Assembly (NCBI GenBank): GCA_947624385.1
Contig: CANQJZ010000023.1
Location: 1-38,965, forward strand
Source of the DNA: an uncultured Oscillospiraceae bacterium
Lineage (GTDB): Bacteria > Bacillota > Clostridia > Oscillospirales > Oscillospiraceae
Reading direction: 5' to 3'
Length of the DNA stretch: 38,965 bases
In this document: piece after piece, positions 2,495-38,965 of the stretch
Numbering within the stretch: position 1 is the first letter of the stretch
How the letters are laid out: each line of letters starts with the position of its first letter
The notes under the pieces: generated by a model
Database searches by the model: none
What the model saw: the letters and a program-made list of their open reading frames with translations, nothing else
Told to the model about the DNA's origin: nothing
Translations under genes and position numbers: made by a program

Positions 2495-3760
2495 TCAGCC
2501 GGCGACCTGCGCCTGCACGGCGTCCAGCTCAGCGCGGACGTCGGCGCCGGTCAGCGCGTTCTGCTCGGCCTTGACAACGCCCTCGCGGACAGTGTCATAG
2601 TTCTCCATAGCGGTGGGATAGAAGCGGCAGCCGTCCAGCACGTCCAGCCAGGCTCCGAAGGAGGGATCGGCCTCCACCAGAGAACCGACGGCGGAGTTGA
2701 CGGCGGGCAGGAAGCCCTCCATGCTGACCCAGCCCACATAGTTCTCGGGATCATAGAAGAACTTGAGGAACTTGCCGATGGCCTCGTCGCGGGCGGCGGT
2801 CTCCTCCTCGGACAGGGACTCGTCCTTGAACGCCATCACGCGGTCCATAACGCCCACAGAGGCGCTTTCCTTGCCCTCGTTGGCAGGGATGTTGGCGGTC
2901 GCCATGTTGACCGTGGACTCCTTGTCAGCGCAGTAGGTGGGCAGCTGGTTGGGAGCGATGAGCATGGCCATGTCGCCGGCGGCAAACATATCCTGCAGGT
3001 CATAACGGGTCTGGGTGGCGGGGTTGGGGTTGGTGTAGCCGTTGTTCACCAGGCTGATGGCGAACTCGATGGCCTCCACGTTCTCGTCGCAGTTGACGAT
3101 CCAGTTGCCCTCGTCGTCCACAAAGCCGCCGCCGTTGCCCCAAGTGTAGTAGGCGAACGCCGCCTGGCCCTCGTCGGTGGTCATGTCGATGCCCCAGGGA
3201 TAGACCTCGCCGTCATAGAAGTCCAGAATGGTCTGGCAGACGTCTTCCAGCTCGGCCCAGGTGGTGGGGGGCTCGATGCCCATTTCCTCGAACATGTCCA
3301 CATTGTAGTACAGAGCGCGGGCGGAGGCCAGGTCGGGCACGGCCCACACGGTGTCGTCAATGATGGACTCGGCGATGAAGGAGGGGAAGAAGTCCTCATA
3401 CAGGTCGTCCGGGCAGAACTGGCTGACCGGCTCCAGCAGCCCGTCATAGGCGTAGTTGGAGAAGTTGTCGTTGTTCAGGATGTCAGGGGCCTGGCCGCTG
3501 GAGATGCGGGTATCGACCACCTGGTCCACGGTATCCCAGGAGATGACCTCCAGGTTCAGCTTTATGCCGGGGTTCTCGGCCTCGAACTTATCCTTGAAGC
3601 AGGTGCCGTCCATGCCGGTACCCAGGAACCAGTCCTCCGTGTTGGGGCCGTACTGGCAGATGATGACGTCCAGGGTGATCTCGTCGCCGTCGGCGAAGGC
3701 CATCGCGCCCAGAGAGAACACCATCGTCAGAGCCAGCAGCAGAGCGATAAGTTTCTTCAT
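2495..3760 (-). CDS. Sugar ABC transporter extracellular binding protein (CUT1)
   Basis: Solute-binding protein of 421 residues. Residues 1-23 form a signal peptide (MKKLIALLLALTMVFSLGAMAFA), followed by the mature start DGDEIT. The central and C-terminal parts resemble family 1 extracellular binding proteins (for example GIKLNLEVISWD, AMLIAPNQLP and GKFLKFFYDPEN). The start is supported by AAAGGAG about 11 bases upstream. It should deliver a sugar or sugar acid to the two permeases encoded directly downstream. Odd point: there is no lipobox cysteine, although monoderm bacteria normally anchor such proteins as lipoproteins. Substrate is not readable from sequence; uronate oligosaccharides are a guess from context. 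Confidence 0.9.
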   Translation of the reverse strand: MKKLIALLLALTMVFSLGAMAFADGDEITLDVIICQYGPNTEDWFLGTGMDGTCFKDKFEAENPGIKLNLEVISWDTVDQVVDTRISSGQAPDILNNDNFSNYAYDGLLEPVSQFCPDDLYEDFFPSFIAESIIDDTVWAVPDLASARALYYNVDMFEEMGIEPPTTWAELEDVCQTILDFYDGEVYPWGIDMTTDEGQAAFAYYTWGNGGGFVDDEGNWIVNCDENVEAIEFAISLVNNGYTNPNPATQTRYDLQDMFAAGDMAMLIAPNQLPTYCADKESTVNMATANIPANEGKESASVGVMDRVMAFKDESLSEEETAARDEAIGKFLKFFYDPENYVGWVSMEGFLPAVNSAVGSLVEADPSFGAWLDVLDGCRFYPTAMENYDTVREGVVKAEQNALTGADVRAELDAVQAQVAG

Positions 3761-37216: not shown

Positions 37217-37918
37217 ATGGTCATGCAGGACAGAGAGAAAAATCCCCACGCCAACCACCGGGAACGTATGCGGGAGCGGTTCATGCGCTACGGCCTGGAC
37301 AGCTTTGAGGACCACAGCATTTTGGAGCTGCTGCTTTTTTACGCCCAGCCCCGCAAGGACACCAACGTGACCGCCCACCGTCTGCTGGAGGCGTTCGGCA
37401 GCCTGGAGGGGGTGTTCGAGGCCACGCCGGAAGCCCTGAAAACGGTGGAGGGCATCGGGGACAACGCGGCGGTGCTCATCCATCTGGTGCCCGAAGTCGC
37501 CCGCAGATACTTCATCGCCAAGGCAGGTCCCGGCACCATCCTGAACGACAGCGAGGCGGTGGGCCGGTATCTGCTGCCCCGGTTTTTGACCTTCCGGGAG
37601 GAGCGGATGTACATGGTGTGCATGGACGCCAAGCTGAAGGTGCTGGACTGCCGGGAGGTCGGCCGGGGCGGCACCATCTCCGTGGGCGTGAACATCCGGG
37701 GCATCGTGCAGCTGGCCCTGAGCCAGAACGCCACCTACGCCGTTCTGGCCCACAACCACACCAGCGGCCTGGCCATACCGTCCAAAGAGGACGTGACCGT
37801 CACCCTCCGGGTGCGCCAGGTGCTGGCGGAGGTGGGCGTGACGCTCACAGACCACATCGTCATCGGCGACGACGACTTCGTGTCCATGGCGGACAGCGGC
37901 TATCTGTCGGGCTTGTGA
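37217..37918 (+). CDS. radC: RadC family JAB-domain protein
   Basis: Protein of 233 residues. The N-terminal UPF0758 helical part has HRERMRERFMRYGLDSFEDH, with helix-hairpin-helix VEGIGDNAAVLIHLVPEVAR near 76-95. The C-terminal JAB/MPN metal domain (about 110-233) has HNHTSGLAIPSKED, the H-x-H and Asp ligands. The family is labelled DNA repair, but direct evidence for repair is weak; RadC-like genes are also common in mobile elements. Here it is a lone chromosomal copy divergent from rodA, often a conserved neighbourhood in Firmicutes (maf, mreB). AAGGATC precedes the start. Confidence 0.92.
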   Translation: MVMQDREKNPHANHRERMRERFMRYGLDSFEDHSILELLLFYAQPRKDTNVTAHRLLEAFGSLEGVFEATPEALKTVEGIGDNAAVLIHLVPEVARRYFIAKAGPGTILNDSEAVGRYLLPRFLTFREERMYMVCMDAKLKVLDCREVGRGGTISVGVNIRGIVQLALSQNATYAVLAHNHTSGLAIPSKEDVTVTLRVRQVLAEVGVTLTDHIVIGDDDFVSMADSGYLSGL

Positions 37919-38378
37919 CGGCGCGCATGCATTTGCATCGGCCGCTGCCGCAACGGCCGCGGGGGACAGTGAAAATTCCCGCGTTATGTTAAATATAAAA
38001 CTGAAACTATTTGTTGCTGGACGCGTTTGCAGAATTTGAAGAAATTTCCAAAACCCGCTTAACAATCGATGGCGCAAGGGCTGAAGGGCTGTTGAAATCC
38101 CTGTTGAAAATGTCGATAACACCCCGAATTAGAAATGAGTAAGGATTTATGTCAAGCAAATTTTGGCGGGCGGGCTGTGGAAAAAAGCGCGGAAAAAGGC
38201 GGTTTCCCGGGACATGGTGAACAGCCGTGCCGCAGGCCGACTTGAAAATTGACGTGGAAATGAATGGAAGAACATGTGCATTTTACCGGATATATTACAG
38301 ACCGTAATCGCGAAAGTGAAAGACGCCTTCGACGCGCTTTCATTTGAACGAAAAACACCCCCAGGCCGTGGATACGAC
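37919..38378. other. Gene-poor interval after radC
   Basis: About 460 bases with no supported gene. Possible minor hairpin CGGCCG/CGGCCG at 37938-37958 could end radC transcription. A+T-rich tracts lie at 37985-38160. A 57-codon ORF (38274-38447) runs into the promoter of the first cassette and is not trusted. A hairpin, CCCCAGG/CCTGGGG (38358-38384), borders the cassette. Confidence 0.5.
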
Positions 38379-38489
38379 CTGGGGATGTTGCGTTTTGTGA
38401 CAGTATATGCTATTCTGTTTGCGGTGCTTTGCACCGGGGCGCTGTAAGCGGCAGGCGGTTAGTCACACCTCTCAAAAGGGGGTGAGGCC
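38379..38489 (+). repeat. Direct-repeat cassette, copy 1 (promoter plus 5' leader)
   Basis: About 110 bp that match 38701-38814 almost base for base up to the small ORF start. Differences are a one-base change in a G run, a one-base difference in a hairpin loop (CGGTGC-TTT-GCACCG against a TTAT loop) and the bases just before the ATG. The hairpin lies right at the predicted RNA 5' end. Confidence 0.9.
38388..38416 (+). promoter_or_regulatory. Promoter of small-peptide gene 1
   Basis: -35 TTGCGT (38388-38393), spacer 17, -10 TATTCT (38411-38416) with an extended TGC just before it. It predicts a start near 38423, directly at the 5' hairpin. Confidence 0.72.
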
Positions 38490-38623
38490 ATGCGTATTAC
38501 ATTACATATCGGACCTTATCGGGTCACGATCATTGTTGTAAGAAGCAGAAACCGCCACCCTGCACGGTGACGGTTTCCATCTGAAATCCAAACTGTAAGG
38601 GCTAACCGCTTGTCACAGCGCCC
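38437..38623 (+). other. Long-range inverted repeat enclosing small-peptide gene 1
   Basis: GGGCGCTGT (38437-38445) pairs with ACAGCGCCC (38615-38623), and GCGGTTAG (38455-38462) with CTAACCGC (38602-38609). TTTTT follows at once (38624-38628). The sense RNA of about 205 nt can thus join its 5' leader to its 3' end, and the closing stem plus T-run would also serve as terminator. Confidence 0.65.
38490..38570 (+). CDS. Small peptide gene 1, candidate type I toxin
   Basis: A 26-residue ORF starting MRITLHIGPYRVTIIVV and ending in a basic tail with SRNRHPAR. GGGGGTGAGG lies just upstream. The second cassette encodes a related peptide; the two differ by in-frame 6-base and 3-base indels with mostly conservative changes, which argues for coding function. 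Alternating hydrophobic/polar residues suggest a beta-strand or surface-active peptide rather than the single helix of Fst or TxpA toxins. The stop codon lies within a hairpin (38548-38577). An antisense RNA is predicted across the 3' end. I know no named family with this sequence. Confidence 0.6.
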   Translation: MRITLHIGPYRVTIIVVRSRNRHPAR

Positions 38624-38630
38624 TTTTTGT
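38548..38630 (-). ncRNA. Predicted antisense RNA to small-peptide gene 1
   Basis: A start near 38630 is set by the minus-strand promoter at 38637-38666. The likely end is the hairpin GAAACCG..CACC/GGTG..CGGTTTC (38548-38577), followed on this strand by TGCTTCTT. The RNA of about 85-90 nt would be fully complementary to the last codons and 3' end of the sense RNA, as RatA and SR4 are to txpA and bsrG. Confidence 0.6.
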
Positions 38631-38636
38631 ATGCTC

Positions 38637-38666
38637 ATTATAGACCGAGTCGGGTTTGCATGTCAA
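38637..38666 (-). promoter_or_regulatory. Near-consensus promoter of the antisense RNA
   Basis: Minus-strand -35 TTGACA (38666-38661) and -10 TATAAT (38642-38637), both perfect consensus hexamers, spacer 18. There is no gene on this strand for it to serve. Confidence 0.85.
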
Positions 38667-38700
38667 GTCCTGCGCGGCCTTTTTTGCGCGTGGCTCCCGC

Positions 38701-38814
38701 CTGGGGGATGTTGCGTTTTGTGACAGTATATGCTATTCTGTTTGCGGTGCTTATGCACCGGGGCGCTGTAAGCGGCAGGCGGTTAGTCACACCTCTCAAA
38801 AGGGGGTGAGGCAT
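38701..38814 (+). repeat. Direct-repeat cassette, copy 2 (promoter plus 5' leader)
   Basis: Second copy of the 38379 cassette, 322 bp downstream in the same direction. -35 TTGCGT (38711-38716) and -10 TATTCT (38734-38739), spacer 17, with the same extended TGC and the same 5' hairpin (loop TTAT). Confidence 0.9.
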
Positions 38815-38965
38815 ATGCCTATTACGCTGACGTTACATATCGGAAGATATACGATAACGTTGACGATAAGAAGGACGAACCGCCACCGTGAACCGCGCCC
38901 CGTCAAGCAGACAGTGAAAAAGAATGAGTTTTCTCAGCCAGCAGGGAACTGCTGGCTGCTTTATG
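38815..38965 (+). CDS. Small peptide gene 2, related to gene 1 (open at window edge)
   Basis: ORF starting MPITLTLHIGRYTITLTIR and continuing through TNRHREPRP to the window edge (50 codons without a stop). It has the same GGGGGTGAGG ribosome site as gene 1. The first 24 residues align with gene 1. Beyond NRH the reading frame passes where gene 1 stops, apparently because of a small deletion in the hairpin, and runs into a terminator-like hairpin. It could be a longer variant or a decaying copy. Confidence 0.5.
   Translation, partial: MPITLTLHIGRYTITLTIRRTNRHREPRPVKQTVKKNEFSQPAGNCWLLY
38935..38958 (+). terminator. Terminator-like hairpin at the window edge
   Basis: Ten-bp perfect stem CAGCCAGCAG/CTGCTGGCTG with loop GGAA, followed by CTTTATG; the rest lies outside the window. 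Confidence 0.6.

What the first reader, a model, noticed from the sequence alone, without database searches (positions are those of the whole stretch)
38388..38666. Candidate type I toxin-antitoxin locus with an unfamiliar peptide
Seen: a promoter, a short leader, a good ribosome site, a 26-residue ORF with a basic tail, and a perfect-consensus promoter on the other strand firing back across the ORF's 3' end with no gene of its own. A hairpin that could end the antisense RNA lies over the ORF stop. Known: txpA/RatA and bsrG/SR4 share this convergent 3'-overlap plan. Inference: the peptide is toxic or membrane-active and the antisense RNA silences it. The peptide alternates polar and apolar residues instead of forming one hydrophobic helix, so it may be a new class.
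Basis: partly seen in the sequence, partly recalled or inferred. Interest (0 to 1): 0.85.

Follow-up and report, generated by a model that had tools for sequence, protein, structure and literature searches.

The report
Unannotated beta-hairpin peptide with antisense RNA
Many gut Clostridia, and some of their likely phages, carry an overlooked gene for a peptide of about 25 residues, predicted to fold as a beta-hairpin and nearly always opposed by an antisense RNA gene, which looks like a toxin-antitoxin pair whose peptide is unlike the known helical ones.

Summary
The 26-codon ORF (38490-38570) is a real gene: pN/pS is 0.02 over codons 2-17 in ten copies of its subtype and 0.16 over codons 9-16 in 95 distinct 25-codon relatives. 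An antisense promoter follows in 129 of 134 intact relatives, perfect in 103; shuffles 2%. The hairpin over the stop codon is more stable on the antisense strand in 129 of 130: an antisense terminator. A second copy lies at 38704-38965. The peptides tested match no Pfam or NCBIfam family; 192 of 210 stretches found in GTDB species genomes encode a relative. In L055 one array carries this peptide and helical, TxpA-looking peptides on nearly the same promoter, leader and 3' end. A 32-residue relative is predicted as a beta-hairpin. Best reading: a type I toxin-antitoxin family with a new, beta-hairpin kind of peptide. Toxicity and both transcripts are untested.

The parts
38388..38416 (+). promoter of the peptide mRNA, TTGCGT-17-TATTCT with extended -10 TGC; start near 38423
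   Evidence: read; conserved upstream in relatives
38423..38435 (+). 5' hairpin GGTGC-TTT-GCACC of the mRNA
38437..38462 (+). 5' strand of the long-distance pairing (38437-38444 and 38455-38462)
38467..38487 (+). hairpin that pairs the ribosome site GGGGGTGAGG
   Evidence: ribosome site paired in 79 of 81 representatives
38490..38570 (+). ORF, 26 aa, MRITLHIGPYRVTIIVVRSRNRHPAR, with stop
   Evidence: purifying selection
38550..38575 (-). antisense terminator hairpin over the ORF stop, followed on the minus strand by a T-rich tract
38602..38628 (+). 3' strand of the long-distance pairing (38602-38609 and 38616-38623) and T-tract, likely mRNA end
38537..38630 (-). predicted antisense RNA, about 95 nt
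   Evidence: promoter and terminator positions; no transcript data
38637..38666 (-). antisense promoter TTGACA-18-TATAAT, 12 of 12
38704..38889 (+). second tandem copy: promoter, leader and ORF start MPITLTLHIGRYTITLTIRRTNRH (ATG at 38815), interrupted after the NRH codons
38890..38965 (+). end of a repeated, insertion-like element inside the terminator hairpin of copy 2; the contig ends in it

Best explanation
A type I toxin-antitoxin locus of an undescribed family. A sense promoter makes a mRNA of about 205 nt. While it is being made, a hairpin holds the ribosome site; once complete, its 5' leader pairs with its 3' end and keeps it silent. A near-consensus promoter on the other strand makes an antisense RNA of about 95 nt, complementary to roughly the last 35 nt of the ORF and the whole 3' untranslated region, ending at a terminator that overlaps the stop codon; it should pair with the mRNA and lead to its cleavage or decay. 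If the antisense RNA is lost, or the mRNA 3' end is trimmed, the peptide is made. The peptide is cationic and probably folds as an amphipathic two-stranded beta-hairpin (strands about 2-7 and 10-16, two-residue turn), and most likely damages the membrane from inside. Shown by sequence comparison: coding, both promoters, strand-specific terminator, leader/3' pairing, paired ribosome site, exchange of the ORF on a shared chassis. Inferred: transcription, toxicity, membrane target, decay by RNase.
For: Coding: pN/pS 0.158 at codons 9-16 in 95 distinct CDS, wrong frames above 4; 0.02 at codons 2-17 in 10 CDS of the window subtype. Antisense promoter in 129 of 134, 103 perfect, shuffles 2.2%. Terminator: U.G on minus and C.A on plus in 28 of 28, minus more stable in 129 of 130 and in 81 of 81 representatives. 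Long-distance pairing: native stronger than the mean of swapped pairs in 129 of 130, sense stronger than the opposite strand in 122 against 8; window mRNA z -6.9. Ribosome site paired in 79 of 81. Same chassis with helical peptides in L055. Beta-hairpin prediction, pLDDT 89 over residues 1-20. Remnants that keep the antisense part and have lost the ORF start.
Against: No transcript, growth or protein data. The structure prediction is of a 32-aa viral relative, because the window peptide is below the 30-residue limit; pTM 0.34, tail pLDDT 50-56; the job on the window's second copy never ran. Shuffle control (a) is weak: cells paired 98.3% against 97.3% in shuffles, further pair types reached by 95 of 500 shuffles, since most helix columns do not vary; the outer long-distance helix has no pair with changes on both sides. 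The native tail is within the best 5% of all tails in only 42 of 81 representatives. 16 of 35 genomes of the genus have no match by the protein profile. 6 of 138 intact ORFs lack a good antisense promoter, one of them cut by a contig end. The long-distance pairing does not itself cover the ribosome site.
Confidence: 0.8

Rival explanations
1. The same RNA plan, but the toxic peptide acts on a cytosolic target (ribosome, nucleic acid or an essential protein) and not on the membrane.
For: Low hydropathy and net charge +5 to +6; Arg21 and His22 invariant in 95 CDS.
Against: The tail codons also form the antisense terminator, so their conservation does not prove a protein role; the strands have one apolar face, which suits a membrane (inference).
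Confidence: 0.25
2. A small non-toxic regulatory peptide (signal, or modulator of a membrane protein or ribosome) whose dose is set by the antisense RNA.
For: Toxicity is untested; 26-aa peptides with antisense control need not kill.
Against: The chassis is shared, in one array, with helical peptides that look like known type I toxins; multi-copy and patchy distribution; remnants keep the antisense part.
Confidence: 0.12
3. A non-coding repeat or small mobile element with inward-facing promoters in its inverted ends; the ORF is incidental.
For: Copies are dispersed and in tandem; leader and 3' end are inverted repeats, so the two ends resemble each other (one search found the L055 ends on both strands).
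Against: Codon-level purifying selection; strand-specific G.U pairs that matter only in RNA. No target-site duplications were looked for.
Confidence: 0.03
4. Leader peptide that regulates a neighbouring gene.
For: Short ORF with structured leader.
Against: Neighbours differ between loci; the transcript has its own T-tract end before the antisense promoter.
Confidence: 0.02

Closest known systems
TxpA/RatA, BsrG/SR4 and the Hol_Tox family (PF16935), Bacillota
   Same: Short toxin ORF with a convergent antisense RNA overlapping its 3' end and a basic C-terminal tail (plan recalled, not from a call). L048 in the window's genus has a helical 28-aa peptide with a weak PF16935 match on the same plan.
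   Different: This peptide matches no PF16935, has maximal 18-residue hydropathy 0.83 against 2.49 for the L048 peptide, and is predicted as a beta-hairpin.
AapA/IsoA of Helicobacter pylori (PMC6733600, passages)
   Same: mRNA silenced by a 5'-3' long-distance interaction plus ribosome-site hairpins formed during transcription; cis antisense RNA; several chromosomal copies.
   Different: AapA1 has a helical membrane segment (PMC8309996, passages). Here the antisense RNA overlaps the 3' end, and the long pairing closes upstream of the ribosome site.
Clostridioides difficile CD2517.1-RCd8, CD2907.1-RCd9, CD0956.2-RCd10 and relatives (PMC6563280 and PMC7699646, passages)
   Same: Unannotated small toxin genes with convergent overlapping antisense RNA in Clostridia, several in prophages.
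   Different: Those toxins have a hydrophobic N-terminus and a lysine-rich C-terminus; not met here.
zor/orz of E. coli (PMC11264685, abstract and outline)
   Same: Antitoxin-only remnants occur, as here.
   Different: Other host and other sequences (recalled architecture); compared only for the remnant pattern.

Membership tests
Type I toxin-antitoxin (functional class) | conserved small ORF under 60 codons | tested here: met
Type I toxin-antitoxin (functional class) | antisense RNA gene complementary to the toxin mRNA (promoter and terminator) | tested here: met
   at sequence level only:
Type I toxin-antitoxin (functional class) | both RNAs are transcribed | not testable with these tools
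   no transcript data at hand
Type I toxin-antitoxin (functional class) | peptide is toxic and the antisense RNA neutralises it | not testable with these tools
   needs expression experiments
TxpA / Hol_Tox (PF16935) | match to the PF16935 profile | tested here: not met
   3 peptides of this kind, no match even at E 10; 0 of 35 genomes of the genus at E 0.01
TxpA / Hol_Tox (PF16935) | one hydrophobic membrane helix | tested here: not met
   hydropathy, prediction of two strands
TxpA / Hol_Tox (PF16935) | convergent antisense RNA overlapping the 3' end | tested here: met
AapA/IsoA | 5'-3' long-distance interaction and ribosome-site hairpin | tested here: met
   predicted and comparative only:
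AapA/IsoA | helical AapA-type toxin | tested here: not met
   AapA1 helix as given in PMC8309996
C. difficile CD2517.1-type toxins | hydrophobic N-terminal region with lysine-rich charged C-terminus, 30-56 aa | tested here: not met
   charged tail present, hydrophobic N-terminal region absent, length 26; feature from PMC6563280
any Rfam family | match at the gathering score | tested here: not met
   window and five relatives: none; window 38300-38965 at E up to 10 gave five matches, all below gathering

The most novel reading that the evidence does not exclude
A first beta-hairpin class of type I toxin, widespread in gut Clostridia and in predicted phages, carried on an RNA chassis (promoter, leader, 3' end, antisense promoter) that is modular: the same chassis, in one array, carries either a membrane helix or a beta-hairpin, so toxins of unrelated fold are swapped while the antitoxin scaffold is kept.
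Probability: 0.6. Interest if true: 0.87.

Novelty: new variant of a known kind. Interest (0 to 1): 0.8.

Why it matters
[quoted passage not shown] the legend of its table also mentions beta-sheet segments, without saying in the text held which toxins have them. A cationic beta-hairpin made inside the cell and kept silent by RNA would be a new toxin chemistry, related in principle to beta-hairpin antimicrobial peptides (recalled). It is also a common gene that the searched family libraries miss: a search for its first eight residues alone gave 192 confirmed stretches in one-genome-per-species data. The shared chassis gives a natural experiment on which parts of a type I antitoxin depend on the toxin ORF, and the overlap of the basic-tail codons with the antisense terminator is a clear case of constraint from both strands.

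Tried and rejected
Rejected: chance promoter; incidental ORF in a repeat; leader peptide of a neighbour (neighbours vary); plain Hol_Tox member; known RNA family.

Led nowhere: phage records gave one match at E 8 by protein and one at 70% identity, E 8e-9, by DNA, both in unannotated records; plasmid records gave one Vescimonas fastidiosa record with 5 and 7 places; PDB sequence search 0 matches. Covariance model R1 was built but never used in a search. Alignment A5 held a wrongly placed L050 row and was not used further. Check of the helical L055 and L054 peptides against PF16935: no match, which weakens the name Hol_Tox for them. One search, a strict chassis pattern, sorted 97 units into 61 beta, 3 helical, 14 other (10 of them the window's own subtype that my pattern missed) and 19 none; it is used only for which loci hold both kinds.

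Not found in print by these searches: five peptide strings in 0 papers; listings of type I systems in Clostridia, gut families and beta-structured toxins show none that by title or abstract start describes it. Only open-licence papers are held, supplements could not be read, and PMC2887945 was not held. PMC8040213, on candidate structured RNAs in human microbiomes, was seen only as a listing and might include this RNA.

Biases and drops: the 138 elements came from peptide patterns, profiles (46, 60) and DNA similarity (17); codons 2-8 are therefore not used as evidence in the 95-CDS set (the ten CDS were found by DNA similarity within the genus). Only 80 of 192 confirmed genome hits were kept. 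Elements with N, or with the same 160-nt core, were dropped. Order search: 27 of 394 including the own genome at E 0.01, 18 at E 1e-6; several others lie inside long unrelated ORFs. Phylum 5 of 398 including own; class 2 of 391 including own, the other a weak part match. The remnant list has 35 units without an intact ORF by my pattern, many of them contig-edge cases, other peptides, variant turns or chance matches; nine or more are true remnants by my reading.

Full report
What is there. The window is contig 23 of a 2.18 Mb, 65-contig genome. The one plasmid-collection record that matches is from Vescimonas fastidiosa (80.8% identity), so the host is probably of that genus or near it (inference). 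After a radC-like gene (37217-37918; PHROGs 'DNA repair protein') lies the locus. A second copy follows in tandem: 108 nt of promoter and leader are identical but for one inserted base, and its ORF starts MPITLTLHIGRYTITLTIRRTNRH before an insertion-like repeat cuts it. The genome has five matches in all; of the three outside the window one is whole in outline (contig 41), one is cut by the same repeat at a contig end (contig 31) and one is a 3' part (contig 41).

Distribution. By DNA similarity 22 of 60 genomes including the own match: 21 of 35 of the genus, some only in part, and one of 25 beyond it. By protein profile 19 of 35 of the genus match, up to 6 times in one genome. In the order 18 of 394 genomes match at E 1e-6 or better, in three families; in the phylum sample 5 of 398 including own, in two further families. 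A search for MRITLHIG in one-genome-per-species data gave 210 stretches, 192 confirmed as relatives, 80 kept; titles of the 80 name mostly Oscillospiraceae and Lachnospiraceae, with Flavonifractor plautii ATCC 29863, Pseudoflavonifractor capillosus, Oscillibacter valericigenes, Clostridium porci and Agathobaculum massiliense among them. Seventeen IMG/VR contigs carry it. In L087 it lies between tail sheath and tail tube genes; in L025 between what I read as a phage holin gene and the start of a later gene (no family search). In F. plautii a BRO-family gene and in C. porci a resolvase lie near, elsewhere ordinary chromosomal genes. In the Vescimonas record no annotated feature lies under it (that gene table is incomplete).

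The peptide is a gene product. I collected 138 distinct elements with 86 distinct peptides. In the 95 distinct 25-codon MRIT-type CDS, codons 9-16 have pS 0.663 and pN 0.105 (ratio 0.158); the two wrong frames give 4.75 and 4.17. Those 95 do not include the window's own 26-codon subtype; for that, ten distinct CDS found by DNA similarity give pS 0.333 and pN 0.006 over codons 2-17 (ratio 0.02), and fourteen of the 27-codon subtype of copy 2 give 0.264 and 0.028 (ratio 0.10). The last codons show weaker selection on the peptide (ratios 0.38 to 0.66) and a lower pS, as they also form the antisense terminator. The consensus is about MRITLHIGxFTVTIIVKxRNRHSAK.

The antisense gene is real at sequence level. 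Of 134 intact elements with enough downstream sequence, 129 have a minus-strand promoter of at least 10 of 12, 103 of them 12 of 12; shuffles give 2.2%, the plus strand of the same region 6.7%; the -10 lies 141-181 nt (median 150) from the start codon. Most of these relatives were found by peptide alone, so the promoter was not selected for. The hairpin over the stop has a pair that is C.A on the plus and U.G on the minus strand in 28 of 28, and folds better on the minus strand in 129 of 130, or 81 of 81 after thinning to about 80% identity. Its T-rich tail is the complement of the Lys/Arg codons, so part of the 'basic tail' may be imposed by the terminator.

The mRNA is built to be silent. 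The window mRNA folds at -94.9 kcal/mol, z -6.9, mainly by pairing of 38437-38462 with 38602-38623, just before the T-tract. On 28 same-genus sequences a named structure of 26 pairs is formed in 98.3% of cells; slid versions give 37-51%. Shuffling is a weak control, as most columns do not vary (97.3% paired in shuffles; further pair types 13 against 12.0, reached by 95 of 500); 4 pairs have changes on both sides (7 of 500 shuffles reach that) and the covariation score exceeds all 500 shuffles. Over 130 elements native leader/tail pairs are stronger than the mean of swapped pairs in 129, and than the opposite strand in 122 against 8; after thinning 80 of 81 and 78 against 3, but the native tail is within the best 5% of tails in only 42 of 81, since core motifs are shared. 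The ribosome site is paired in 79 of 81. This resembles AapA/IsoA (PMC6733600, passages), except that here the long pairing closes upstream of the ribosome site, which has its own hairpin.

One chassis, two kinds of peptide. In L055 four units lie in tandem: two encode MITYSELFAYTLVIIGIVGLMLQIANKK and MVTYSELFQLLMFLVAFAGLILQLSKRK, hydrophobic single-helix peptides of TxpA look (recalled), and two encode this peptide. Across types the 99 nt of promoter and leader are 85-95% identical and the last 65 nt 95%, while the ORFs are 53-59% and the stretch between 46-50%. L152 and L054 also hold a helical unit beside this peptide. L048, of the window's genus, has a 28-aa helical peptide with a weak PF16935 match (E 0.029, below the cut-off) and the same plan, with a leader/3' duplex of -59.5 kcal/mol, antisense promoter and hairpin. 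The helical peptides of L055 and L054 do not reach PF16935, so this is an argument from architecture.

Fold. Around the Gly-x turn cross-strand partners match in polarity (I7/F10, H6/T11, L5/V12, T4/T13), and the MPITLTLHIG subtype is two residues longer in the first strand. AlphaFold2 on the 32-aa relative of L096 (20-row alignment A7) gives strands 2-9 and 12-19, pLDDT 89 over residues 1-20 and 50-56 beyond, pTM 0.34. Other turns occur on the same chassis: HILQW and HVLFW, HILGY and HPFGF (read by eye). Maximal 18-residue hydropathy is 0.43-0.93 for these peptides against 2.49 for the helical L048 peptide, so a membrane helix is unlikely.

Loss pattern. At least nine units, in L007, L018 (three), L026, L037, L040, L042 and L047, keep antisense promoter and hairpin but have lost the ORF start (my reading of the list), while 6 of 138 intact ORFs lack a good antisense promoter. 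This is what a toxic product might leave, as reported for orz-only E. coli (PMC11264685, abstract), but my searches recovered the two kinds unevenly, so it is a weak argument.

Verdict. Type I toxin-antitoxin architecture: very likely. Toxic peptide: likely, untested. Beta-hairpin: likely, one prediction on a relative plus sequence pattern. Novelty: new variant of a known kind, with a peptide class that I found in no library or paper searched.

Noticed in passing
window 38890-38965; L004 1-72; L021 about 1611-1689; L054 1-60; L131 about 3070-3150: The end of an insertion-like repeat lies inside the antisense terminator hairpin of five copies in four genomes or records (two in the own genome), at contig ends, so its transposase is not seen. 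The same end also occurs outside such hairpins (L197, L199, L206), and 8 of 35 genomes of the genus have it.
   Followed up: partly
L055 480-1700, minus strand: Array of four type I-like units on one chassis, two with helical and two with beta-hairpin peptides.
   Followed up: yes
L048, minus strand: A helical 28-aa Hol_Tox-like peptide in the window's genus, with the same sense promoter style, long-distance pairing and antisense promoter segment TTTTTGTATGCTCATTATAG.
   Followed up: partly
L037, L042, L007 near 1380, L018 near 360-700: Remnants that keep the antisense promoter and terminator but have lost the start of the peptide ORF.
   Followed up: partly
L184, L187, L190, L193: A divergent subtype such as MPVRLTFHIGRFTISIEIRLTHRNNRHYGQ in two genomes of another family of the phylum, with 9 profile matches in one of them.
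   Followed up: no
L087 near 3858: A chassis-like antisense promoter and T-tract with a different short reading frame in a phage-like contig.
   Followed up: no
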